Positions 144-12,241 of a stretch of 12,241 nt of DNA are shown here, one piece after another. The DNA is from JACPSX01 sp035288405 [NCBI: bacterium] (GTDB lineage: Bacteria > JACPSX01), in assembly GCA_035288405.1 (NCBI GenBank), contig DATEAK010000023.1, positions 1 to 12,241 of the forward strand. Reading direction: 5' to 3'. Under the pieces are notes generated by a model, which had not been told where the DNA came from, did no database searches, and worked only from the letters and a program-made list of their open reading frames with translations. The translations under genes and the position numbers were made by a program. Every line of letters starts with the position of its first letter. The stretch's first letter is position 1.

Positions 144-530
144 TCAACCTTCACTTCCTTCACCCCCAATGGGCAATGGACGAATCCGAATACGGGTTTG
201 TTCAAAGACGACAACACTTCCCTGCTCTAGGACTTCTTCGATCGCCGCCAGATTGGCCAGCAAGAGTGCTAACTGCTTCTCGGGTCGCCGCTCTGAACCA
301 CGCCGAAATAAAAGTATCGATGGCTTGCTTTCTTTACGTAGCGCCAGCAGCGTCCCAAAATCGGTGTCGGCAGAGACGAGAACCCGATTTTCCTCGACGG
401 CTTTCTCAAAAATCTCCTCGTCCTCAGCCTCCTGCAAGCCATAGTCTCGCACATGTACCGCATCATGTCCGGCTAGACGCAAGCCCTCCGCCACATTCCG
501 TGATAGCGCGTTGTCTACCAGGAATTTCAT
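144..530 (-). CDS. DUF5615 PIN-like protein, probable toxin of a TA pair
   Basis: This 128-residue protein looks like the DUF5615 (Mut7-C/PIN-like) family, small putative ribonucleases usually paired with DUF433 proteins. The N-terminus [10 protein letters not shown] places the first acidic residue at D6. An acidic cluster follows at E34-E39, and the motif [10 protein letters not shown] gives D55 and D57. This spacing fits a PIN-like metal-binding centre. The order [16 protein letters not shown] then SADTDFG is typical of the family. The start ATG overlaps the stop of the upstream DUF433 gene by ATGA, so translation is probably coupled. The last residues (PIGGEGSEG) are low-complexity and may be dispensable. 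RNase activity and a toxin role are inferred from the family and the pairing, and nothing in the sequence tests them. The family call is confident. Confidence 0.87.
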
Positions 531-757
531 GGTGCCGCGACGAGCGGAATTTCTCGCTCACGCACTGCTTCGGCGGCATACCGCAGGGCCTCTTGGATGT
601 CTTCATGTTCAAGGTCAGGCAACGCCTGAAGAATCTCCTCTTCGGTCATCCCGTCAGCAACCATGCTGACAACCGTCGCAACTGGAATCCGCAGCCCGCG
701 CAGGCAGGGGACCCCACCCATTTGCTGAGGATTTACCGTGATCCGGGTAAAAGTCAT
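527..757 (-). CDS. DUF433 domain protein, probable antitoxin
   Basis: This 76-residue protein belongs to the DUF433 family, a small winged-helix-like domain found as the partner of DUF5615 proteins. Visible hallmarks are [21 protein letters not shown], the conserved G-x-P-x-x-x-G-x-R-I-x-V segment, and a C-terminal helix with [19 protein letters not shown] start it at the ATG at 757. A strong GGAGG lies 8 bases upstream of this ATG. The in-frame GTG at 766, which would add three residues (MRK), overlaps that Shine-Dalgarno and is unlikely to be used. It is the first gene of a two-gene operon and overlaps the toxin-like gene by ATGA. It probably neutralises the DUF5615 protein and may repress the operon, as inferred from family behaviour. 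I found no clear promoter upstream. Confidence 0.87.
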
Positions 758-763
758 CTTTCT

Positions 764-770
764 CACCTCC
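764..770 (-). promoter_or_regulatory. Shine-Dalgarno deciding the DUF433 start
   Basis: Read on the minus strand this is GGAGGTG, with GGAGG 8 bases before the ATG at 757. It covers the alternative GTG at 766 and therefore argues for the shorter protein. Confidence 0.7.
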
Positions 771-1215: not shown

Positions 1216-1560
1216 TTAAGGAGCAAACATTTCCTGCAGAACCGCCAGTACGGAAGCCACCGCGCTGGGAGCCAAGCGTCCCAGTGGCCTCACCAGTCGC
1301 TCGGTATCAACCGTGCGCAACTGGTCGACGGCGACGAATCCCGCTCTCCCCTGAAAGCGGCATCGAACGCGCCATGGATAGGCACGCCCTCCCGTCGTCA
1401 TAGGGGCGACGATCACAATATGCAGATGCTGATTCAATTCGTCAGGAGAGACCACAAGGCAGGGACGCGTCTTGCGAATTTCGCTGCCGCGTGTGGGATC
1501 GAGCTGGACCAAGTACACCTCGCCACGCAACGTGGTGACCCGCTCTATCGCCACTCCCAT
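1216..1560 (-). CDS. mazF: MazF/PemK-type endoribonuclease toxin
   Basis: This 114-residue protein is a MazF/PemK-family toxin, a sequence-specific mRNA interferase. The order of motifs is clear: LRGEVYLVQLDPTRGSEIRKTRPCLVVS in the first 40 residues, HIVIVAPMTT around 47-56 and GFVAVDQLRTVD around 74-85. By spacing, R32 (in KTRP) and T55 (in APMT) correspond to the catalytic Arg25 and Thr48 of Bacillus subtilis MazF, so the active site looks intact. Length is normal for the family. The start ATG at 1560 lies inside the 3' end of the antitoxin gene with a 16-base overlap. GAGG sits only 1 base before this ATG, so the GTG six bases downstream (at 1554) is an alternative start. Translation is probably coupled to the antitoxin. 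The family call is firm and the target sequence is unknown. Confidence 0.92.
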   Translation of the reverse strand: MGVAIERVTTLRGEVYLVQLDPTRGSEIRKTRPCLVVSPDELNQHLHIVIVAPMTTGGRAYPWRVRCRFQGRAGFVAVDQLRTVDTERLVRPLGRLAPSAVASVLAVLQEMFAP

Positions 1561-1796
1561 TCCTCTTCGTCAAACCGCGTCGTTGTCGGCGGGTCAAGAA
1601 GCCGGTCGTCGCCCTGCTTCCGCATCCGCCGGGCGGCAGCCGCCCAGCCTGCCCGAGGTCGGGCCGCTCTGCGTATCACAATGCGCCCGGGCTCGGCTTG
1701 CAGTTCGACTTCATCCGGGAGCTGAGCCTCCTCCAGCAGTACCTTGGGGAGGCGTATACCGCGTGAATTACCGATCCGCACAATGCGAGTCTTCAT
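1545..1796 (-). CDS. mazE: MazE/AbrB-type antitoxin
   Basis: This 83-residue protein has an N-terminal swapped-hairpin AbrB/MazE DNA-binding domain (about residues 1-45: MKTRIVRIGNSRGIRLPKVL, then a second strand pair ending GRIVIRR). A basic linker follows. The C-terminal tail is acidic and Trp-rich (RFDEEEWEWR), of the kind that wraps around a MazF dimer. I choose the ATG at 1796 because GAGGG lies 5 bases upstream. An in-frame TTG at 1808 would add four residues but overlaps the ribosome-binding site. It is the first gene of the pair, directly followed by mazF with a 16-base overlap. Antitoxins of this type usually repress their own promoter, and a candidate promoter lies just upstream. 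The identity is well supported by domain pattern and context. Confidence 0.88.
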   Translation of the reverse strand: MKTRIVRIGNSRGIRLPKVLLEEAQLPDEVELQAEPGRIVIRRAARPRAGWAAAARRMRKQGDDRLLDPPTTTRFDEEEWEWR

Positions 1797-1821
1797 CAGA
1801 GCCCTCAATCAATGTGCTTAT

Positions 1822-2244: not shown

Positions 2245-2250
2245 GGGAGG
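2245..2250 (+). promoter_or_regulatory. Shine-Dalgarno deciding the UbiD start
   Basis: GGGAGG lies 4 bases before the ATG at 2255 and supports the shorter reading frame over the upstream ATG at 2126. Conserved UbiD sequence begins right after this ATG (MKDRDLRDFI). Confidence 0.65.
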
Positions 2251-2254
2251 CGGC

Positions 2255-3703
2255 ATGAAAGATCGAGACCTCAGAGATTTTATAAAGATGGCCCAGGAAG
2301 CGGGAGATCTGCGGCGCATATCTCCGGAAGTGGACTGGGACCTGGAGCTTTCCCACATCGCCAAGATCAACGAAGAGAGAAGGGGTCCCGCTCTCCTCTT
2401 TGAGAACGTGAAGGGATACGACATCCCTGTCTTCAGCAGCATCTTGAGCACTCCGAAGCGTCTGGCCATGGCCCTGATGATGCCCACCGACTGGTCTATC
2501 TGCCAGATGGCCAAAGAGTGGGTGCAACGCTGCCAGAATCAAAGGATCGCCCCGGTGGAGGTCCAGGAAGCCCCCTTCAAGGAAAATATCCTGAAGGGAG
2601 AAGCCGTGAACTTGTATCGGCTCCCGGCTCCCCGATTTTACGAGCACGACGGCGGCCGCTATGTGGGGACCTTTTGCACCTGGGTCACCCGAGACCCCGA
2701 GACCGGATGCGTGAATCTGGGAACCTACCGCCTCCAGATTCTCGACCCGCGCTCCGCCGGATCCTGGGTGGTCCGCGGCAAGCATGCGGAGCTTCACCTG
2801 CGCAAATACGCCGCTCGGAACGAGCCTATGCCGGTCGCCGTCATCTTGGGCTACGACCCTCTCATGATCCTCTGTTCCGGGGCTCCTCTCGCGTTCGGCG
2901 AGTCCGAATACGATCTCATGGGGGCGTTGCGCGGCTTCCCGGTTCCGGTAACACGAGGAGAGGTCGTGGATCTTCCCGTCCCGGCCAATGCGGAAATCGT
3001 GCTCGAAGGCTATGTGTGGCCGGGCCGGCTCAAACCGGAGGGCCCTTTCGGAGAGTTCACCGGCTATTACAGCGGGGGGGAGCGCGAGGGCATCGGTCCC
3101 TCGCCGAAAGAATATATCGACGTGCAGTGCATTTCGCATCGGAACCACCCGATCTACCCCATCTGCTCGGTGGGAAGACCGGTCACGGACGACCACATGA
3201 TCGTCAGCCTCTTCCGCACCTCAAGTCTCTGGCTGGACTTGGACGCCATGAAGATTCCGGGAATTCAGTCCGTGTATATCCCTCCCGAATCGTGTGGAAG
3301 CTTCATTGCCATCGTCTCCGTAAAGCAAATGTATCCTGGTCATTCTCGTCAGGTCGGCAACGCCGTCCTGGCCAGCAACTGCGGGACTTACGCCGTGAAG
3401 ATGGTGATTGTGGTAGATGAAGATATTCCGGCCGACGATCTGGATAAGGTGCTCTGGGCCTTGAGCGTCCGTTATCAGCCGGACCGGAGCACAGATGTCT
3501 TGCGGGGACAGCGCTCGAACCCCCTGGACCCCTCTCTGCATGTCGATGCCCGGGATGTCACCTCCAAGATCATACTGGATGCCACCATACCTTTTGATTG
3601 GAAGGAAAAACCCCGGGTCGCGTCTCTTTCCCCCCAGGTGGTGGAGAGAGTGCTCGGTCGATGGAAGGAGTACGGTCTGGAGGATATCTCTCCAAAACGC
3701 TAG
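2255..3703 (+). CDS. UbiD-family prFMN-dependent decarboxylase
   Basis: This 482-residue protein is a UbiD-family (de)carboxylase, which uses prenylated FMN to remove or add CO2 on aromatic or alpha,beta-unsaturated acids. The key residues align by spacing with Aspergillus niger Fdc1. N154 and R159 (NLGTYR) match N168/R173, H177 matches H191, and E218 (GESEYD) matches the metal ligand E233. E262 and E267 (EGPFGE) match the catalytic E277/E282. Cofactor-binding and acid/base sites therefore look complete. Length is normal. I choose the ATG at 2255 because GGGAGG lies 4 bases upstream. The open frame extends back to 2126, but that part overlaps the promoter and has no homology I recognise. No UbiX flavin prenyltransferase is present in the window, so the cofactor must come from elsewhere. 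The gene precedes an ABC importer, amidase and dehydrogenase, which suggests a catabolic rather than a ubiquinone role. The substrate is unknown. Confidence 0.93.
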   Translation: MKDRDLRDFIKMAQEAGDLRRISPEVDWDLELSHIAKINEERRGPALLFENVKGYDIPVFSSILSTPKRLAMALMMPTDWSICQMAKEWVQRCQNQRIAPVEVQEAPFKENILKGEAVNLYRLPAPRFYEHDGGRYVGTFCTWVTRDPETGCVNLGTYRLQILDPRSAGSWVVRGKHAELHLRKYAARNEPMPVAVILGYDPLMILCSGAPLAFGESEYDLMGALRGFPVPVTRGEVVDLPVPANAEIVLEGYVWPGRLKPEGPFGEFTGYYSGGEREGIGPSPKEYIDVQCISHRNHPIYPICSVGRPVTDDHMIVSLFRTSSLWLDLDAMKIPGIQSVYIPPESCGSFIAIVSVKQMYPGHSRQVGNAVLASNCGTYAVKMVIVVDEDIPADDLDKVLWALSVRYQPDRSTDVLRGQRSNPLDPSLHVDARDVTSKIILDATIPFDWKEKPRVASLSPQVVERVLGRWKEYGLEDISPKR

Positions 3704-3915: not shown

Positions 3916-4758
3916 GTGCCTGGCTCTCAACCATATCAGGTAACTTCCTGTTTCGACGAATCCACACAAAACAGCCTCAAATCCACTCTGATCGAGGTTC
4001 GTGGAGTCAGCAAGTCCTTTCGGATTCAACAGGCGTCTTTTTGCGTATTCGAGGGGCTCAATCTAGCGATCGAGGAGGGCAGTTTTGTTTCCATCGTTGG
4101 TCCGTCGGGCTGTGGCAAGTCCACCCTGCTTAAGGTGATCGCCGGTTTGCAACGTCCCACCTCAGGTTCGGTATTCTTCAAGGGAGAGCCTGTTACAAAG
4201 CCCCCCGCTAACATGATCTATCTCTTTCAGCAGTACCCGAAATCGGTCTTTCCTTGGCGGACCGTCTGGCAAAACGTCCTCTTCGGCATAGAGGACAAGA
4301 AAGATCTGGACCGCGGGGAAATCCAGGAAAGGGGTCGCAAGTACCTGGCGCTGGTGGGACTGCAAGGAAACGAGACCCTTTACCCTTCTCAGCTCTCCGG
4401 AGGCATGCAGCAACGCCTGGCCATTGCCCGGGCCCTCGCCTGTGAACCGGAAGTGGTACTGATGGATGAACCCTTCAGCGCCGTGGATGCGCTGACCCGG
4501 ATGAAACTCCAGCAGCTTCTGTTGGAGATCTGGGACCGGGTGAACATCACCGTTATCTTTGTCACCCACGATGTAGAGGAGGCTGCCTTACTTTCCCGCA
4601 GGGTAATCGCCTTGACCCGGACCCCCGCCATCATTGATAAAGACTTGCGGATCGACCTTCCCTACCCACGCAATCACTTGACCACGCGGGAAGATCCCAG
4701 ATTTGGAAGTTATCGGCGCGAGCTTCTGCAAAGCATTTTTCAGGCGGAAAGCATGTGA
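3916..4758 (+). CDS. NitT/TauT-type ABC transporter ATP-binding protein
   Basis: This is the cytoplasmic ATPase of an importer of the nitrate/sulfonate/taurine (NitT/TauT, SsuB/TauB) family. All nucleotide-binding motifs are present in order: Walker [11 protein letters not shown]-loop [13 protein letters not shown], signature LSGGMQQR, Walker [13 protein letters not shown] and the H-loop THD. The short Q-loop region and the [13 protein letters not shown] segment are typical of this subfamily. The start is uncertain. The GTG at 3916 has a well-placed GAGGGG and gives 280 residues, close to family length. The ATG at 3850 gives 302 residues with a long unmatched N-terminus. The permease gene follows after 16 bases. 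The family call is firm. The substrate cannot be read from the ATPase; the surrounding enzymes suggest a nitrogen-containing organic acid. Confidence 0.93.
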
Positions 4759-4774
4759 AGGGAGAGCCATCAAA

Positions 4775-5530
4775 ATGCGGGAAAAGTGGCCGGGAATCAC
4801 CCTGATCTCCATCCTCCTGGCAGGCTGGGAAGTCTTGGTTCGCAGCGGAATGATCGATACCCCAAGCTTGCCACCCGTCTCGCTTATCTTTATTGCGTGG
4901 TATCAAGCCGTCATCTCCGGCGAGCTGATCGGACACCTGCTGCCCAGCCTGCAGAGGATTGCCATCGGTTACTCCCTTGCGATCGCCGTCGCCGTTCCGC
5001 TCGGCTTGCTCATGGGTTCCATCAAACTCGTTTACTCTCTCTTCGAACCTCTCACCGAACTCATCCGTCCCATACCCAGCGCCGCTTATGTCCCCATGGC
5101 CATCCTCTTTTTTGGCATCGGGAATGAAATGAAGGTGTTCGTGATCTTCCTGGCCTGTATCTGGCCGATCCTCCTGAACACCTATGGCGCGGTGAGGGGC
5201 ATTGACCCCGTTCTCGTGGAAACCGGGAGAACCTTCGGCTATTCTCATGCTAAAGTGCTCCGCAAGGTCGTCTTTCCCTCTATTTTGCCGGAGATTTTTA
5301 CCGGCATGCGCGTGAGTCTAGGGATTGCCCTGATCGTCGTCGTAGTGGCCGAAATGATCGCCGGCAACAACGGCATTGGCTACTTCATCCTTGATAGACA
5401 GCGTTTCTTCAGAGTCGCAGCCATGATTGCCGGCATCTTTACCCTCGGTATAGTCGGATATGCGCTGAATTGGGTTTTCCTTCGCTTTGAGGGGTATGTT
5501 CTGCGTTGGCGCCAGACATCCGGGTCTTGA
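4775..5530 (+). CDS. NitT/TauT-type ABC transporter permease
   Basis: This 251-residue inner-membrane protein is the permease partner of the preceding ATPase. About six hydrophobic segments are visible, near residues 7-23, 62-84, 103-117, 119-137, 178-194 and 213-238. The cytoplasmic EAA loop that docks on the ATPase is clear (about 149-177: ETGRTFGYSHAKVLRKVVFP, then LPEIFTG). These are the marks of the BPD_transp_1 superfamily, SsuC/TauC type. I choose the ATG at 4775, which follows AAGGGAGA by about 9 bases. The frame is open back to 4703, but that would overlap the ATPase gene and add an unmatched hydrophilic leader. A single permease gene is normal for this family because the channel is a homodimer. 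The function class is confident and the substrate unknown. Confidence 0.93.
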   Translation: MREKWPGITLISILLAGWEVLVRSGMIDTPSLPPVSLIFIAWYQAVISGELIGHLLPSLQRIAIGYSLAIAVAVPLGLLMGSIKLVYSLFEPLTELIRPIPSAAYVPMAILFFGIGNEMKVFVIFLACIWPILLNTYGAVRGIDPVLVETGRTFGYSHAKVLRKVVFPSILPEIFTGMRVSLGIALIVVVVAEMIAGNNGIGYFILDRQRFFRVAAMIAGIFTLGIVGYALNWVFLRFEGYVLRWRQTSGS

Positions 5531-6779: not shown

Positions 6780-7283
6780 ATGAAGCAGCTCGTATCCAGA
6801 GGGGAAAATTATACGGAGATGTTGCCGAGTTTCCGGAGCCTCATCCTGAAGTTGGGAGTCCAGGCAGACGATGCCGTGATTTTTTCCGGTTGCCCCGGAA
6901 CCTGTTACTCTATGGCCACCTTCCTGGCCTTCGGGATCAGGGACCTAGGCTTTAAAATCTATTTCGCCGTCAATTCCGACTTGAACCAACTGTGGCACCT
7001 CGACTACGTGGATCATCTGGGAATGGTTGGAGCCAATAAGGTAGAGCCAGTGCAAGCCCAAGTGCTCATCCTGATGTCGGGCCTCATGAGGGTTCCATTG
7101 GAAGGTACGCTCAGCCTCGTCCGAGAGGCCTTGGCACCCGGGGGACATATTATCGGGGAGACAGTCGTCCCTGGACTGTTTGAAGACTCGAAATGGGATC
7201 AACAGATCCCGTTTCATGGCTTTTTTGAATTTGAAATGCGCAATCCCGCTTCTTACCTGGCTATCGAGGAAAAGAAAGGCTGA
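6780..7283 (+). CDS. DUF2124-like protein of unknown function
   Basis: This 167-residue cytoplasmic protein has no signal peptide or membrane segment. Its pattern resembles DUF2124, a family I know mainly from methanogenic archaea. VIFSGCPGTCYSMATFLAFGIRD (about 33-55) contains C38 and C42, LILMSGLMRVPLEG lies around 96-109, and GETVVPGLFEDSKW near 126-139 is followed by a hydrophobic/acidic C-terminus. The SGCPGTC loop could bind a metal, thiolate or phosphate, but no function is established. I choose the ATG at 6780, preceded by GGGAGGAGGG. A GTG at 6753 would add nine residues but lies upstream of that ribosome-binding site. It sits between the transporter and the GatC-like/amidase pair, 34 bases before the latter. 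This placement suggests a role tied to the imported compound. The family match is from memory and should be confirmed. Confidence 0.6.
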   Translation: MKQLVSRGENYTEMLPSFRSLILKLGVQADDAVIFSGCPGTCYSMATFLAFGIRDLGFKIYFAVNSDLNQLWHLDYVDHLGMVGANKVEPVQAQVLILMSGLMRVPLEGTLSLVREALAPGGHIIGETVVPGLFEDSKWDQQIPFHGFFEFEMRNPASYLAIEEKKG

Positions 7284-7317: not shown

Positions 7318-7515
7318 ATGTCTGCGAACGCAGAGCTGCTCAAAACGATTTTCCAAGAACTCCTGAACTTTGATCCCCATCCGGATGATCTGGAAACCCT
7401 TTCGCAAATGATCGACACCCTCAAGCAAGATACAGCCAGGCTGGAGGAAGTAGACACCACAGGGGTAAATCCAGCTTTCCTCTCCGAACCATTTGCCGGG
7501 CCCCGGAAAGTCTAA
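7318..7515 (+). CDS. GatC-like small protein, AtzG type
   Basis: This 65-residue protein resembles GatC, the small subunit of the tRNA-dependent amidotransferase GatCAB. The shared part is the helical segment LETLSQMIDTLKQDTARL followed by EEVDTTGVNPAFLSEP, close to the GatC pattern L-x-x-V-D-T-x-G-V-x-P. It is shorter than GatC (about 95 residues). In length and position it matches AtzG, the GatC-derived partner that stabilises the amidase AtzE in cyanuric acid breakdown. The amidase gene follows after one base and no GatB is present, so a role in tRNA amidation is unlikely. The ATG at 7318 follows CGAGG by 7 bases. The open frame back to 7180 overlaps the previous gene and is not used. It probably wraps around and stabilises the amidase, which is inference from GatC/AtzG structures. 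Confidence 0.75.
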   Translation: MSANAELLKTIFQELLNFDPHPDDLETLSQMIDTLKQDTARLEEVDTTGVNPAFLSEPFAGPRKV

Positions 7516-7516
7516 G

Positions 7517-8929
7517 ATGGATCAATCTCTCCTCTTTGCACCCATCCGCGAGCTGGCTCACAAGATACGAGAAGGCGAGACCAGTTCCCTTAGCGTCATG
7601 GAAAGCCTTCTGGAGAGGATCAACCGCTTAAACCCGCAAGTCCAGGCCTATTTGACGGTTTCCCAGGAACGCTCCCTGGAAGCTGCGCAGCAGAAGGACA
7701 GGGAGATGCGTGCGGGGAAAAACTCTGGACCCTTGCACGGCGTACCTCTTGCCCTGAAAGACAACATAGAAACTAAAGGTCTCAGGACCACCAACGGGGC
7801 CAAGCGGCTTCACGATCATATTCCCTCTGCAGATGCCACGATCGTCAAGAAGCTAAAAAAAGCTGGGGCTATTATTTTCGGCAAGCTCAACATGCACGAA
7901 ATTGCCCTGGGTGGTACGACAGACAACCCTCACTACGGCTTCACCAGAAATCCCTGGGATAGCAGCCGGATTCCCGGCGGGTCCAGCGGAGGCTCCGCAT
8001 CCGCCGTCGCCGCAGGGATGTGCCCTGCCTCTTTCGGGACCGATACGGCCGGAAGCATCCGCATACCCGCAGCGCTCTGCGGAATCGTCGGTCTCAAGTC
8101 CACGCTCGGACGCGTTAGCCGCTCGGGAGTGTTTCTTCTAAGCTGGTCCATGGACTGCGTTGGTCCCATCACGAGAACCGTCCGGGATGCTGCCCTCTTG
8201 CTGGAGGTAATCGGAGGATTTGACCCCAAGGATCCTGTCACCTCGAGGAAACGACTTCCCCGGTACACAGAGGAACTCGAGGCGGGAATAAAGGGCATCC
8301 GGGTGGGCGTCTGCAAGGAGTACTTCTCCGACCTCGTGGAACCCGACGTCCATCGCGCTTTTCAGGGCGCCATGACGGAGATTTCCCGCTTGGGAATCGA
8401 TGTAGTCGAGCTTCCCCTGAATCTTGAGCGTGCCCACGTTTCTGCGGCTCATGAAATCATACTGGCATCAGAGGCCGCCACGTACTATGAACCTCACCTG
8501 AGAGCGGGTATCGGAGACTTCGGCCCGGATGTCCGCTTGCGGCTCCAGCGTGGCCTGGCGATTCCGGCGGTTCACTATTTGAAAGCCCAGCAAGTCAGAA
8601 CCGTGATCCAGCAGCGGTTCCGGGATCTTTTTGACCAGATCGACGTCATGGCCTCACCCACGGTTGCTGTCCCGGCTCCTCTCAGGGGTCAACAAAACGT
8701 CTCGGCGGGAGGAATTCAGAGGAGTCTGAGAGAGGCCCTAGTCAGTTTGACTCTGCCCGTTAATCTCGTGGGTTTTCCGGCCATCACGGTCCCCTGTGGA
8801 TTCAGTTCCGAGGGTTTGCCCCTCGGCCTCCAACTCGTGGGGCGGCCTTTTGACGAAGCAACCCTGTTGCGGGTCGCCCATGGCTTTGAGTCAGCAACGC
8901 CGTGGAAAGATCAGAGGCCTCCACTGTAA
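7517..8929 (+). CDS. Amidase-signature hydrolase, GatA/AtzE-like
   Basis: This 470-residue enzyme is an amidase-signature hydrolase, which cleaves amide or related C-N bonds. The Ser-cisSer-Lys triad is intact: K81 (PLALKDNIETKG), S156 in the glycine/serine-rich motif PGGSSGGSAS, and S180 in FGTDTAGSIRIPA. The 24-residue spacing of the two serines matches FAAH Ser217/Ser241. The C-terminal part contains the usual NLVGFPAITVPCGFSSEGLP and PLGLQLVGRPFDEATLL. Length agrees with AtzE and GatA. The ATG at 7517 is one base after the GatC-like stop, with GGAAAG nearby. An upstream in-frame start at 7493 would overlap that gene. With its small partner and without GatB, it most resembles AtzE-type hydrolases rather than the tRNA amidotransferase. 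The substrate is unknown. A carboxylated urea, amide or cyclic-imide-derived product is plausible. Confidence 0.93.
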   Translation: MDQSLLFAPIRELAHKIREGETSSLSVMESLLERINRLNPQVQAYLTVSQERSLEAAQQKDREMRAGKNSGPLHGVPLALKDNIETKGLRTTNGAKRLHDHIPSADATIVKKLKKAGAIIFGKLNMHEIALGGTTDNPHYGFTRNPWDSSRIPGGSSGGSASAVAAGMCPASFGTDTAGSIRIPAALCGIVGLKSTLGRVSRSGVFLLSWSMDCVGPITRTVRDAALLLEVIGGFDPKDPVTSRKRLPRYTEELEAGIKGIRVGVCKEYFSDLVEPDVHRAFQGAMTEISRLGIDVVELPLNLERAHVSAAHEIILASEAATYYEPHLRAGIGDFGPDVRLRLQRGLAIPAVHYLKAQQVRTVIQQRFRDLFDQIDVMASPTVAVPAPLRGQQNVSAGGIQRSLREALVSLTLPVNLVGFPAITVPCGFSSEGLPLGLQLVGRPFDEATLLRVAHGFESATPWKDQRPPL

Positions 8930-8985: not shown

Positions 8986-9984
8986 ATGAACGAGATTTCT
9001 GTAATCCAATACGGACTGGGTCCTATCGGCAGAATGATCACCCGCTGCCTTCTCGAGCGCCCGAAAATCCGCATCGTGGGGGCCATCGATATCGACCCTG
9101 CATTGGCGGGGAAAGATCTGGGCGAGGTGGCCGAACTCGGGAAGGATCTCGGGGTCCCTGTTTCTTCGGACGCCTCTCAGGTCCTGTCCTCGTCTCCATC
9201 CGGAGTCGTCATTCTGACGACCGGATCCTCGCTGAGCAAGGTAGCTCCCCAGATAGAACAGATTCTTGCCAAGGGCCACGCAGTGGTCTCAACCTGCGAA
9301 GAGCTGTCCTACCCGTGGAAAACGCAGCCCGACCTGGCCCGGCGCATTGACCAGGTGGCCCGCCAGCACAACGTTGCAGTTTTGGGAACCGGCGTCAATC
9401 CCGGTTTCCTCATGGACTTCCTCCCTCTGGCCGTGACCGCCTTGTGCACGGAAGTGAAATCCATTCGTGTCGGACGAGTCCAAGATGCTTCCAAGCGCCG
9501 CCTCCCCTTCCAGCAAAAGATCGGCGCAGGGCTCGACACGGATCAGTTTGACGCCCGGCTTAAGGACGGTTCCTTACGCCACGTGGGGCTCACCGAGTCG
9601 ATTCACATGATCGCCGCGAGACTGGGATGGGAGGTGGAAAGAATCGATGAGCGAATCGTGCCCGTCATCGCCGGCGCTCCCGTGGCCAGCGCGGAAATCC
9701 AGGTTTCGCCGGGACAAGTGGCGGGCATCGAACAGCTTGGGGATGGAATCATCGATGGGGAAGCTCGCATCCGTTTGTATATGAGGATGTCCTTGCAGGA
9801 ATCCGAATCCTACGAAAGCATCGAAATTAACGGCTCGCCGTATTTGAAGTCCGTGATGCCCGACGGCGTCCACGGAGATATGGCCACGACCGCAGTCGTC
9901 ATCAACGCAATCCCGGTCATACTGCGGGCAGAACCGGGACTGCGGACGATGGCCGACCTCCCTCCCGTATCATACTGGGAATGA
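8986..9984 (+). CDS. DapB-N/2,4-diaminopentanoate dehydrogenase-like oxidoreductase
   Basis: This 332-residue protein begins with a Rossmann dinucleotide-binding fold (YGLGPIGRMITRCL, GxGxxG at G10-G15) and the acidic second strand VGAIDIDPALAGKDLGE. This is the N-terminal domain seen in dihydrodipicolinate reductases and in 2,4-diaminopentanoate dehydrogenase. The C-terminus (about 293-326: DGVHGDMATTAVVINAIP, then LRAEPGLRTMADLP) matches the end of the 2,4-diaminopentanoate dehydrogenase group, which deaminates an amino acid with NAD(P)+ in ornithine fermentation. A true DapB is shorter (about 270 residues). The middle contains GTGVNPGFLMDFLPLA. I choose the ATG at 8986, which follows AAAGGAAG by about 9 bases. 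It lies 56 bases after the amidase and is the last gene of the block. It may oxidise or reductively deaminate an amino compound released upstream. The substrate is inference. Confidence 0.82.
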   Translation: MNEISVIQYGLGPIGRMITRCLLERPKIRIVGAIDIDPALAGKDLGEVAELGKDLGVPVSSDASQVLSSSPSGVVILTTGSSLSKVAPQIEQILAKGHAVVSTCEELSYPWKTQPDLARRIDQVARQHNVAVLGTGVNPGFLMDFLPLAVTALCTEVKSIRVGRVQDASKRRLPFQQKIGAGLDTDQFDARLKDGSLRHVGLTESIHMIAARLGWEVERIDERIVPVIAGAPVASAEIQVSPGQVAGIEQLGDGIIDGEARIRLYMRMSLQESESYESIEINGSPYLKSVMPDGVHGDMATTAVVINAIPVILRAEPGLRTMADLPPVSYWE

Positions 9985-9992: not shown

Positions 9993-10907
9993 CTAGAGGG
10001 AACTGCGTGCAGCAGCCACCTTGCGGGCCTGCTCGATAATATCCACTCCAGTGAGTTCAGCCCACGCCGCCAGAAGCCGGCGAGTAACCGGCCCTGGCAC
10101 TTCCTTCCCCACACGCCTGCCGTTGAAAGTTGCCACCGGAAACAAGGTGAAGCTGTTGGCGGTGATCATCATTTCGTCTGCCATGTAGAGATCGTACGGA
10201 GTCAAGTTGATTGCCGAAACCTCCAAACCGATCTTGGCGGCAAGGCCCGTGAGAGCCTGGCGGGTAATGCCGCCCAAAATGTTCTGGTCTTTCGGGCTAA
10301 TTAACTTCCCTTCTTGCACCATGAAGAAGTTAGAGGAAGCCCCCTCAGCGACATGGCCTTCCAGATCCAACATCAGGGCAAACGCTTCGGGATCAACGGC
10401 GCGGGCCTCCATTTCCGCCAAAATATGGTTTAGTTTGTTTGGAAGCTTGGCGCGAGGGTCCAGGCACTGAGGAGGGGTCCGCCGTGTCGACACCAGGACC
10501 AGTGCGATACCCTGCTCGTAGTTCTTTACAAACCGGTCAAAGGGAGGGGGAACACAATGGATGATCACCGTAGCCCTCCCTTCCGGCCGGAACATTCCAA
10601 CCCCCCGAGAGATTCTCTGCACGAGGAGAAAGTCATCATCGGAACCCAAGAAATGGCGGTTTCGGTTGAATACCTCCACGGTGATGTCGCAGACCTGCTG
10701 AGCGGTCAAACCGATATCGAGCCCGATGTATTTGAGAGAGCGAAACAGCCGGTCCACATGTTCCTTGAGCTTGAAGGGCCGGTGCCCGAAGGTCCGCGCG
10801 ATGTCATACACCCCGTCTCCAAAAACGAATCCCCGATCATACATGGAGATCCTGACCTCGCCTTCCGGAATATATTCTCCGTTACAATAAGCAATTCGTT
10901 CCGCCAT
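9993..10907 (-). CDS. Class IV PLP-dependent aminotransferase (D-amino-acid/branched-chain type)
   Basis: This 304-residue protein is a fold-type IV aminotransferase, the group of IlvE, D-alanine aminotransferase and aminodeoxychorismate lyase. Typical features are YCNGEYIPEGEVRISMYDRG at the N-terminus, FGDGVYDIARTF near 29-40, K154 as the likely Schiff-base lysine (DPRAKLPNKLNHILAEMEA), and E188 in AEGASSNFF, which contacts the pyridine nitrogen of PLP. ILGGITRQALTGLA near 220 is the phosphate-binding segment. Length is right for IlvE or DAT. The ATG at 10907 follows GAGG by 6 bases. The gene lies 20 bases downstream of the hydantoinase B gene, so they are likely co-transcribed. It may transaminate a D- or L-amino acid made from a cyclic amide. 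D- versus L-specificity cannot be told from the sequence. Confidence 0.9.
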   Translation of the reverse strand: MAERIAYCNGEYIPEGEVRISMYDRGFVFGDGVYDIARTFGHRPFKLKEHVDRLFRSLKYIGLDIGLTAQQVCDITVEVFNRNRHFLGSDDDFLLVQRISRGVGMFRPEGRATVIIHCVPPPFDRFVKNYEQGIALVLVSTRRTPPQCLDPRAKLPNKLNHILAEMEARAVDPEAFALMLDLEGHVAEGASSNFFMVQEGKLISPKDQNILGGITRQALTGLAAKIGLEVSAINLTPYDLYMADEMMITANSFTLFPVATFNGRRVGKEVPGPVTRRLLAAWAELTGVDIIEQARKVAAARSSL

Positions 10908-10927
10908 GTCTCGCCTCGCTTTTCGAG

Positions 10928-12241
10928 CTAGCTACTGCCCCCCTTGGGGCCATTCCCATCTGCCTGTCTTGATTCTCGAAGTTGTACGGTCTTTTTCTCA
11001 TCTACCGACAGGTCTCTAGGGTCGAGAACAACCCCATAATCCCTTTCCGCCGCCTGAATTGAAGTGTATCCGTCGCTTACGTCGGCCGCGACCAAATCCG
11101 GAGGCCGACTGTAAGGATCTCCCCAGCCACCGCCACCCCCCTTGAAAATGCAAATCCGATCCCCCGGTATCACCTGAGACTCCAGGCACCGTCCCGGGGG
11201 AACCTCCACATCGCCCGTCTCCCTCTGCAGGATGCAACGATTCGGGCTCCCATGTTTCCCTCCGCACAGGCCCGAGGAAGGATATTTCCCGCCCCATACC
11301 ATCAAAGCAGCAGAGGCCTCATGATCGATCATGCGTTCCACCGTTTTCACCCCCGGCCCACCTCGCCACCTCCCGGGGCCGCAGGAATCCTGGATAAACT
11401 CTCTTTCCTCGATAAAATGGGGGTATTGCACTTCGCTCATCTCTACCGTGGTATACGCCATCCCTCCCCGCGTAATGCAGAGGCCTCCCCAGCCGTCATG
11501 ACAGAAAGCAGCACCGTCTCCTCCGTTCATCATCACAAAGTTCAACGACAAATAAGGCTTCCCCGTCCTTGGATCGATGCCCGAAATGACCGGTTCCACC
11601 TTCTTATCCCACATGGTGCCGACCCGATTTGGAATCGCTTTTGAAAGGGCCAGAGTCACCACCTCGGCGATTTCGGCGCCGGGATGAATCGTGCAGAAGC
11701 CCGTGGCGGCCCCCTCACGGGGATTGACCACGCTCCCTTCCGGCGCAATCAAGCTGACGGGCCTGAAGATCCCCTCGTTTTTCGGGATCTCCGGGTCCAA
11801 AACACCACACAGGGCGATGAACGTCCAGGACCAGGTGTTCCCCAACGGGCTGTTAGCAAATCCTCTGACTTGGGGACTTGAACCGTTGAAATCCACCTTC
11901 AGGTCGCTCCCCTGGATCGTGACAGTGGCGTGAAAGTGAATGTCAAAGTTGTAATATCCATCACCGTCCAAGTAGGAGCTAGCCTCGTAGGTCCCGTCGG
12001 GCCAGCCTTCTATCTCTGACCTCACTCTTCTTTCGCTGTAATCGAGGGCGTATTCGAGAGCCTCCACTACCGTCTCCGGACCAAACTCATCCAGGAGCTG
12101 ATGAATGCGGCGCTCGGCGATCCGGCACGAAGCAATCATCGCATCAATATCACCTTGAAACCATTCCTTGAACCGCGAGTTTCGGATCACCCAATCGTAA
12201 ATATCCCACTTCATCTGTCCTCGCTCACAGATGCGCAAGGG
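10928..12241 (-). CDS. Hydantoinase B/acetone carboxylase alpha-type protein, 5' end cut by window
   Basis: This is the C-terminal 437 or so codons of a HyuB-type protein (family length about 520-590). It is open at the right window edge, so the true start lies beyond 12241. The frame reads through the last bases without a stop, and the in-frame Met codons near the edge are probably internal. Visible family features include GFANSPLGNTW, NPREGAATGFCTIHPGAEIAE, GGDGAAFCHDGWGG, FIQDSCGPGRWRGGPGVKT and the glycine-rich end FKGGGGGWGDPYSR. HyuB pairs with HyuA in ATP-dependent N-methylhydantoinases, oxoprolinases and acetone or acetophenone carboxylases. HyuA would be expected upstream, outside the window. 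The aminotransferase gene follows after 20 bases. The family is firm, and the substrate (hydantoin, 5-oxoproline, ketone or other) is open. Confidence 0.9.
   Translation of the reverse strand, partial: PLRICERGQMKWDIYDWVIRNSRFKEWFQGDIDAMIASCRIAERRIHQLLDEFGPETVVEALEYALDYSERRVRSEIEGWPDGTYEASSYLDGDGYYNFDIHFHATVTIQGSDLKVDFNGSSPQVRGFANSPLGNTWSWTFIALCGVLDPEIPKNEGIFRPVSLIAPEGSVVNPREGAATGFCTIHPGAEIAEVVTLALSKAIPNRVGTMWDKKVEPVISGIDPRTGKPYLSLNFVMMNGGDGAAFCHDGWGGLCITRGGMAYTTVEMSEVQYPHFIEEREFIQDSCGPGRWRGGPGVKTVERMIDHEASAALMVWGGKYPSSGLCGGKHGSPNRCILQRETGDVEVPPGRCLESQVIPGDRICIFKGGGGGWGDPYSRPPDLVAADVSDGYTSIQAAERDYGVVLDPRDLSVDEKKTVQLRESRQADGNGPKGGSS

What the first reader, a model, noticed from the sequence alone, without database searches (positions are those of the whole stretch)
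7318..8929. AtzG/AtzE-like pair: a GatC-derived mini-subunit with an amidase and no GatB
A 65-residue GatC-like gene lies one base before an amidase with a complete Lys81-Ser156-Ser180 triad, and no GatB is nearby. The same arrangement is known for AtzG-AtzE in cyanuric acid breakdown, where a GatC relic stabilises a catabolic amidase. Here it sits in a different setting (NitT/TauT importer, UbiD, DapB-like dehydrogenase), so it may be a further lineage of relic-transamidosome hydrolases with a new substrate.
Basis: partly seen in the sequence, partly recalled or inferred. Interest (0 to 1): 0.7.

Follow-up and report, generated by a model that had tools for sequence, protein, structure and literature searches.

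The report
Amidase with a GatC-like mini-partner
Beside a transporter operon lies an amide-cutting enzyme with a tiny partner protein that resembles a piece of the tRNA-amidation machinery; similar pairs sit beside other such enzymes, often unlabelled, and in some Acidobacteria the partner carries an export-like signal or is part of the enzyme itself.

Summary
Window 7318-7515 encodes a 65-aa protein and 7517-8929 a 470-aa amidase-signature enzyme with Lys81-Ser156-Ser180; no GatB is among 15 window proteins scanned. The amidase lies outside the GatA clade (100/100) and the AtzE/HpxY clade (100/100). In a 45-row tree it falls in a 14-row set whose members all have a mini-GatC partner (97/94); in a wider tree two partnerless rows join (93/92). 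The small protein's homology is weak alone (GatC 13.5 bits, cut-off 23); collective tests support it. Ten of 14 plasmid amidase loci read here have such a small gene, 8 of the 10 'hypothetical' or unlisted. Beyond the finding, some Acidobacteriota pairs have a Tat-like signal on the small subunit and none on the amidase, and others are single chains of Tat-like signal, mini-GatC domain and amidase, which ties the two domains together. Best reading: a cytosolic two-subunit amide hydrolase of a lineage beside AtzGE, substrate unknown. 'Relic of the transamidosome' is neither shown nor excluded. The host could not be tested; seven partner-bearing genomes each have a separate GatC and GatB.

The parts
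7318..7515 (+). mini-GatC subunit, 65 aa, two predicted helices and a tail with EVDTTGVNPAF (canonical GatC L080 has EVDTTGVEP, many minis EPA); ends before the C-terminal third of GatC
7517..8929 (+). amidase-signature hydrolase, 470 aa, Lys81-Ser156-Ser180
6780..7283 (+). DUF2124 protein, 34 bases before the mini-GatC gene; probably same operon (inference from spacing)
   Evidence: PF09897, 65.7 bits
5706..6695 (+). NMT1/SsuA-type substrate-binding protein of the importer
   Evidence: Pfam NMT1 90.2 bits; NCBIfam SsuA_fam below its cut-off
4772..5530 (+). ABC permease, TauC/SsuC/NtrB type
   Evidence: NCBIfam matches below their cut-offs
3994..4758 (+). ABC ATPase, NitT/TauT type
   Evidence: NCBIfam matches below their cut-offs
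2249..3703 (+). UbiD-family (de)carboxylase, over the cut-off of phenylphosphate carboxylase beta
   Evidence: TIGR02724, 509.1 bits, cut-off 468.95
8986..9984 (+). DapB/2,4-diaminopentanoate-dehydrogenase-like oxidoreductase
   Evidence: NF040740 278.6 bits, cut-off 400

Best explanation
The two genes encode one cytosolic enzyme: an amidase-signature hydrolase with a small, non-catalytic GatC-type subunit. Shown: gene order, intact catalytic residues, GatA/AtzE fold of the model, a two-helix small protein that resembles GatC, and a place on the tree outside GatA and outside AtzE/HpxY. Inferred: the small subunit docks on the amidase as GatC does on GatA and AtzG on AtzE and keeps it folded; the one-base spacing couples their translation; the complex hydrolyses an amide brought in by the NitT/TauT-type importer upstream, with UbiD and the dehydrogenase working on the acid or a neighbour compound. 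The same kind of partner stands beside other amidases that have no GatB next to them, and in Acidobacteriota it occurs with a Tat-like signal or fused to the amidase.
For: Gene order and catalytic residues. Tree: GatA (9 rows) 100/100 without the window; window inside a 14-row set, all labelled mini, 97/94; a 24-row all-mini set at 96 in a quick tree of 98 rows. GatA motif SNLxRYDG in 17 of 20 gatCA rows and 0 of 39 mini or Tat-mini rows; Q in IRxPA in 16 of 17 readable gatCA rows (20 in all) and 0 of 26 readable mini or Tat-mini rows (39 in all). Small subunit. Natural fusions: of 30 loci returned, 24 have the amidase in the same ORF as the mini match; a profile of the fused domain lists only minis and canonical GatCs before the first decoy at rank 28. 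Of 9 stand-alone Tat-minis fetched that were not in the training set, 8 are followed by an amidase within -11 to +33 bases and the ninth lies near a contig end. Function by context: a mini-amidase pair behind nitrile hydratase genes in Rhodococcus, and one behind ABC importer genes in G789. AtzG is non-catalytic and AtzE is not soluble without it (PMC6219798; part 1 of 5 and passages read).
Against: The window's small protein has no significant single match (GatC 13.5 bits; held-out E 0.34; Foldseek E 0.89; VIA Z 4.8, low for a helical protein; AtzG chains not among the 18 Foldseek rows). The fused-domain profile does not list it in the 70 rows printed. Only 12 of 29 hand-picked minis are listed by the GatC profile, and 4 of 18 held-out tests fail. 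Several amidases close in sequence (L125 and L128, 44-45% identity) have no partner that I could see. In the wider tree two partnerless rows, L044 and the long-branched L002, fall in the window's group. No complex could be modelled. Substrate unknown.
Confidence: 0.75

Rival explanations
1. It is a true AtzE/HpxY enzyme (1-carboxybiuret or oxalurate type) with an AtzG/HpxX subunit.
For: Best NCBIfam models are the two AtzE-family ones; AtzE structures are near the top of the fold list; the window is near the AtzE clade.
Against: Below both AtzE cut-offs (414.5 against 461; 394.5 against 425.75); outside the 100/100 AtzE/HpxY clade; no AtzG-like PF13318 match listed; no atzH/hpxZ next door: the next gene is DapB-like.
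Confidence: 0.12
2. The small ORF is spurious or an unrelated short protein; the amidase works alone, as many do.
For: No family match passes a cut-off; close homologues without a visible partner exist; 43 of 1850 wrong-frame pieces score as high in codon usage.
Against: Position, length, helices, GatC-like tail and rank ahead of all decoys.
Confidence: 0.09
3. It is a genuine GatCA of tRNA amidation with gatB elsewhere in the host.
For: GatA structures are the best fold matches and the best PDB sequence matches; split gat genes exist (recalled).
Against: GatA clade 100/100 excludes it; far below the gatA cut-off (385.6 against 481.1); IRIPA in place of IRQPA and no SNLxRYDG motif; the small protein ends before the C-terminal third of GatC.
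Confidence: 0.04

Closest known systems
AtzG-AtzE, 1-carboxybiuret hydrolase of Pseudomonas sp. ADP (PDB 6c62/6c6g)
   Same: 68-aa small subunit gene just before an amidase-signature enzyme; no GatB; catabolic setting; same fold of the large subunit (Z 57.6)
   Different: Window amidase outside the AtzE/HpxY clade and below its cut-offs; small protein not matched by PF13318; no atzH; importer/UbiD/dehydrogenase neighbours
HpxX-HpxY type pair of Klebsiella (hpxX, AtzE family amidohydrolase, hpxZ)
   Same: 61-aa subunit gene overlapping the amidase gene by 4 bases
   Different: Sits in the AtzE/HpxY clade with hpxZ; the window has neither
GatC-GatA of GatCAB
   Same: Fold of the large subunit; small model most like GatC, weakly; gene order C then A
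   Different: Short GatC, no GatB nearby, GatA motifs missing, separate clade
Tat hitchhiker pairs (PaoABC: PMC4273604, start of abstract in a search listing only; MelC1-MelC2: recalled)
   Same: In the Acidobacteriota relatives the small subunit carries a Tat-like signal and the amidase none
   Different: Not so in the window; export not tested; no GatC-type escort among the papers listed by my searches

Membership tests
Amidase signature family (PF01425) | Profile match and Lys-Ser-Ser triad | tested here: met
   432 bits, cut-off 27; K81, S156, S180
AtzE family (NF006631, TIGR02715) | Curated score cut-off | tested here: not met
   414.5 against 461 and 394.5 against 425.75
AtzE/HpxY clade | Branching inside the clade | tested here: not met
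   Clade of 6 rows 100/100 without the window; 13 rows 100
AtzG-like (PF13318) | Profile match of the small subunit | tested here: not met
   Not listed at E up to 10 (HMMER's filters drop most matches above about 0.1); AtzG and HpxX are over the cut-off
AtzG-AtzE gene pair | Small subunit gene directly before the amidase gene, no GatB | tested here: met
   One base apart; no GatB among 15 proteins scanned
AtzG-AtzE gene pair | Obligate complex; small subunit needed for solubility | not testable with these tools
   Needs expression; reported for AtzEG (PMC6219798)
AtzG-AtzE-AtzH cluster | atzH/hpxZ gene beside atzE | tested here: not met
   Next gene is DapB/Ord-like
GatC (PF02686) | Curated cut-off of the profile | tested here: not met
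   13.5 bits against 23
GatC fold | Two-helix GatC arrangement | tested here: inconclusive
   Top two Foldseek rows are GatC chains but E 0.89 and 2.2; VIA Z 4.8 and 4.7, next row 3.2
GatA of GatCAB (TIGR00132) | Cut-off, clade, SNLxRYDG motif | tested here: not met
   385.6 against 481.1

The most novel reading that the evidence does not exclude
The GatC-type small subunit is not a relic of the transamidosome but an old, general partner of a large branch of amidase-signature hydrolases, of which GatCAB is one derived member; many partners are missed by annotation. In Acidobacteriota the partner was turned into a Tat export escort that carries a signal-less amidase across the membrane, and was then fused to the amidase. 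The window pair is a cytosolic member beside AtzGE.
Probability: 0.35. Interest if true: 0.75.

Novelty: new variant of a known kind. Interest (0 to 1): 0.58.

Why it matters
If amidases of this branch need a hidden 60-aa partner for folding, as AtzE needs AtzG, enzymes cloned alone may fail for that reason, and labels such as 'amidase' and 'hypothetical protein' would need correcting. The Tat-bearing and fused forms give a direct test of co-export, and the spread of the partner bears on whether GatC arose with the transamidosome or before it.

Tried and rejected
Host genome: none is held, so 'is there a separate gatCAB in the host' could not be answered; seven partner-bearing genomes were checked instead.

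The one genome-contig scan gave 2 relatives only; viral contigs none. DUF2124 of the window: no match in plasmids. DapB/Ord-like protein: 29 plasmid records, best 47.9% in Halomarina, a haloarchaeon by name (recalled); this did not tell the host. Phyla other than those of G001 and G002 could not be surveyed: no handle for them. Group names for G genomes follow from the record titles of L001 (Bryobacterales) and L002 (Rhodobacteraceae); the genomes themselves are unnamed.

A complex model of the two proteins was not made: the tool folds single chains, and I did not build an artificial fusion.

Results against the reading. Foldseek for the small protein: no match at E <= 0.001, AtzG chains not among the 18 rows. 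The GatC profile lists 12 of 29 minis at E <= 50, its N-terminal part 14 of 29. The window's small protein is not in the 70 rows printed for the fused-domain profile. In one search, 4 of 18 held-out tests did not beat the decoys (L048, L132, L089; L051 was not listed); held-out tests such as L042 are helped by close relatives left in the training set. One of the 24 fused pieces (L204) was cut at the wrong place and is a signal piece; the Tat-minis in its list are not independent, since they fetched the fusions.

Ancestral state of the partner: not settled. The outgroup was not one side of a branch (3 rows on the wrong side), so gain against loss cannot be told.

Rows dropped: one search kept one in three gatCA rows and left out L091, L110_2 and L013; one search left out 12 distant or long-branched rows and L153, L154; one search used 45 of 98 rows chosen by hand; one search used 54 chosen rows. 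Labels: L093 was moved from none to mini by eye; L009, L017 and L019, labelled none, look like fused minis, and L017 and L019 still count as none. Minis and 'no partner' were judged by eye from upstream ORFs; the profile tests are the check. Of the short-frame matches I did not fetch G573:C36 (310-aa frame).

Full report
WHAT IS THERE. The amidase matches PF01425 with 432 bits; Lys81, Ser156 and Ser180 are present and invariant in a 17-row alignment. Its model has pLDDT 93.8 and matches GatA 2df4_A (Z 59.6, rmsd 1.5, 459 aligned) and AtzE 6c62_A (Z 57.6, rmsd 1.7, 455 aligned). Neighbours on the same strand, from the left: UbiD family, ABC ATPase, permease, binding protein, DUF2124, the pair, and a DapB/diaminopentanoate-dehydrogenase-like protein. 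No GatB is among the fifteen window proteins scanned.

IS THE SMALL PROTEIN GatC-LIKE? Alone it is weak: GatC 13.5 bits against a cut-off of 23; no useful PDB sequence match. Together the evidence is better. A profile of 53 canonical GatCs was run over 5043 six-frame ORFs and 29 hand-picked minis. The first 28 rows are canonical GatCs of the training set; then come L049, L045, L043, the window, L053 and L001, all directly upstream of amidases, and three more minis, before the first unrelated ORF (E 0.16 for the window against 6.1). With the N-terminal part only, the window has E 0.089 against 2.8 for the first unrelated ORF. The same profiles list only 12 and 14 of the 29 minis. Held out of a combined profile, the window protein has no decoy above it (E 0.34); this is so in 14 of 18 held-out tests, the window's included, while L048, L132, L089 and L051 fail. 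The model is two helices, pLDDT 87.7. The first two Foldseek rows among 350,542 chains are GatC chains, with E 0.89 and 2.2, and VIA gives them Z 4.8 and 4.7 against 3.2 for the next row. The tail reads EVDTTGVNPAF; canonical GatC L080 has EVDTTGVEP, and many other minis have EPA there. The ORF ends before the C-terminal third of GatC. Codon usage is coding-like (43 of 1850 wrong-frame pieces as high).

WHICH AMIDASE? NCBIfam ranks AtzE models first, but below their cut-offs, and gatA third. In a careful tree of 45 rows GatA (9 rows) is a 100/100 clade without the window, AtzE/HpxY (6 rows) another 100/100 clade without it, and the window lies in a 14-row set whose members are all labelled as having a mini partner (97/94). 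A quick tree of 98 rows gives a 24-row all-mini set (96). With distant rows added (54 rows) the same neighbours return at 93/92, now with two rows without partner (L044, L002). The GatA motif SNLxRYDG is in 17 of 20 gatCA rows and 0 of 39 mini or Tat-mini rows. The residue x of IRxPA is Q in 16 of 17 readable gatCA rows and in 0 of 26 readable mini or Tat-mini rows; 3 and 13 rows could not be read. Six of 39 rows without partner also have Q. The window has IRIPA.

HOW COMMON ARE SUCH PAIRS? Of 14 plasmid records read, 10 have a short ORF that I judged to be of this kind directly before the amidase and 4 (Streptomyces, Priestia, Shinella, Deinococcus) do not. Two are annotated as AtzG and HpxX, six as hypothetical protein, and two (Rhodococcus, Planktothrix) have no gene listed, though the PLSDB gene table is incomplete. 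Of nine minis scanned (eight of these ten and L001), only AtzG and HpxX pass the AtzG-like cut-off. In Rhodococcus the pair stands behind nitrile hydratase genes; in G789 behind DUF1028 and ABC importer genes. Seven partner-bearing genomes were checked: each has one separate canonical GatC match and at least one GatB_N match over the cut-off, so these pairs come on top of GatCAB.

AN UNEXPECTED EXTENSION. In genomes of the phylum of G001 (the Bryobacterales genome of L001; Acidobacteriota) some minis begin with a Tat-like signal. A profile of four such proteins (alignment A4) matched in 91 of 396 genomes at E <= 0.001, with at most 12 candidates scored per genome. Of the 30 loci returned, 24 have an amidase in the same ORF as the match: Tat-like signal (by eye), mini-GatC domain, amidase; in L204 the mini part is less clear. 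Twelve further places were fetched. Nine are stand-alone small ORFs; 8 of these 9 are followed by an amidase within -11 to +33 bases, and the ninth lies near a contig end. Two of these 8 (L213, L214) are near-copies. Of the other three places two are fusions and one is a broken frame. By a crude test 12 of 13 stand-alone Tat-minis have a Tat-like start against 120 of 5043 background ORFs, and 0 of 12 partner amidases do. The profile was trained on Tat-bearing minis, so the share with a signal is biased; the amidase next door is an independent check. A profile of the fused domain lists only minis (Tat-minis first) and canonical GatCs before the first decoy at rank 28. Of 8 Tat-mini and 7 fused rows in the 54-row tree, 7 and 6 form one clade (98/94), with the 6 fusions as a clade inside it (100/100); L129 (Tat-mini) and L019 (fused) lie elsewhere. 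Pfam finds only the amidase above cut-off in seven fusions, with GatC at 15.7 bits, below its cut-off, in one. Fusion of the two domains in relatives is the best sequence evidence that a mini-GatC works on its amidase.

HOW IT WORKS. Most likely the mini-subunit is structural, as AtzG is: non-catalytic, and AtzE is not soluble without it (PMC6219798; part 1 of 5 and passages read). The amidase hydrolyses an amide supplied by the importer. This is inference from gene order and family knowledge; the substrate is unknown. The window's mini has no Tat-like signal, so the pair is taken to be cytosolic.

WHAT IS KNOWN. AtzG-AtzE and atzG-atzE-atzH clusters in Proteobacteria are published (PMC6219798). 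Esquirol et al. 2018, whose title speaks of a vestigial complex, is not held; I know it from citations and PDB titles. A 2025 paper describes an uncharacterised GatA-like amidase in ammonia-oxidising archaea, distinct from gatCAB GatA (PMC12625717, passages). Searches for AtzG-like and DUF4089 gave no paper; GatC-like with amidase gave one, on yeast GatFAB; hitchhiker with amidase and related terms gave five, none on a GatC partner by title and start of abstract. Only open-licence PMC papers are held, and these listings were not read further.

LIMITS. No host genome, no complex model, two phyla surveyed in samples, minis picked by eye and then tested by profile, deep branches of the tree unresolved. 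'Relic' and 'ancestral partner' both remain open.

Noticed in passing
L156 3045-3344; L163 4422-4718 (-); L164 6622-6915 (-); L161 1304-1567 (-); L206, L207, L209-L214: Mini-GatC proteins with a Tat-like start directly before a signal-less amidase (L212 fails the crude Tat test): possible co-export by an escort subunit.
   Followed up: yes
L181-L188, L190-L205, L009, L216, L217: Single-chain proteins with a mini-GatC-like domain, most with a Tat-like signal by eye, before the amidase; Pfam labels only the amidase in the seven scanned.
   Followed up: yes
L017, L019: Amidases labelled partnerless carry an in-frame N-terminal piece resembling the end of a mini-GatC: perhaps a second, independent fusion.
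   Followed up: partly
L043 4802-4978: Unlisted mini-GatC ORF between nitrile hydratase genes and an amidase on a Rhodococcus plasmid.
   Followed up: partly
window 144-766 (-) and 1216-1808 (-): DUF433/DUF5615 (PIN-like) and MazE/PemK toxin-antitoxin-like pairs at the left end of the window (the MazE match is just under its cut-off).
   Followed up: no
window 6780-7283: DUF2124, described by Pfam as conserved in archaea, inside this operon; the DapB/Ord-like neighbour's best plasmid match is Halomarina, 47.9%. Host of the window unknown.
   Followed up: partly
G577: One genome of 4.7 Mb gave 44 amidase candidates at the first look, with mini, Tat-mini, fused and seemingly partnerless forms in it.
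   Followed up: partly
window 9993-12238 (-): Class IV aminotransferase and hydantoinase-B-like gene on the other strand, convergent with the operon.
   Followed up: no
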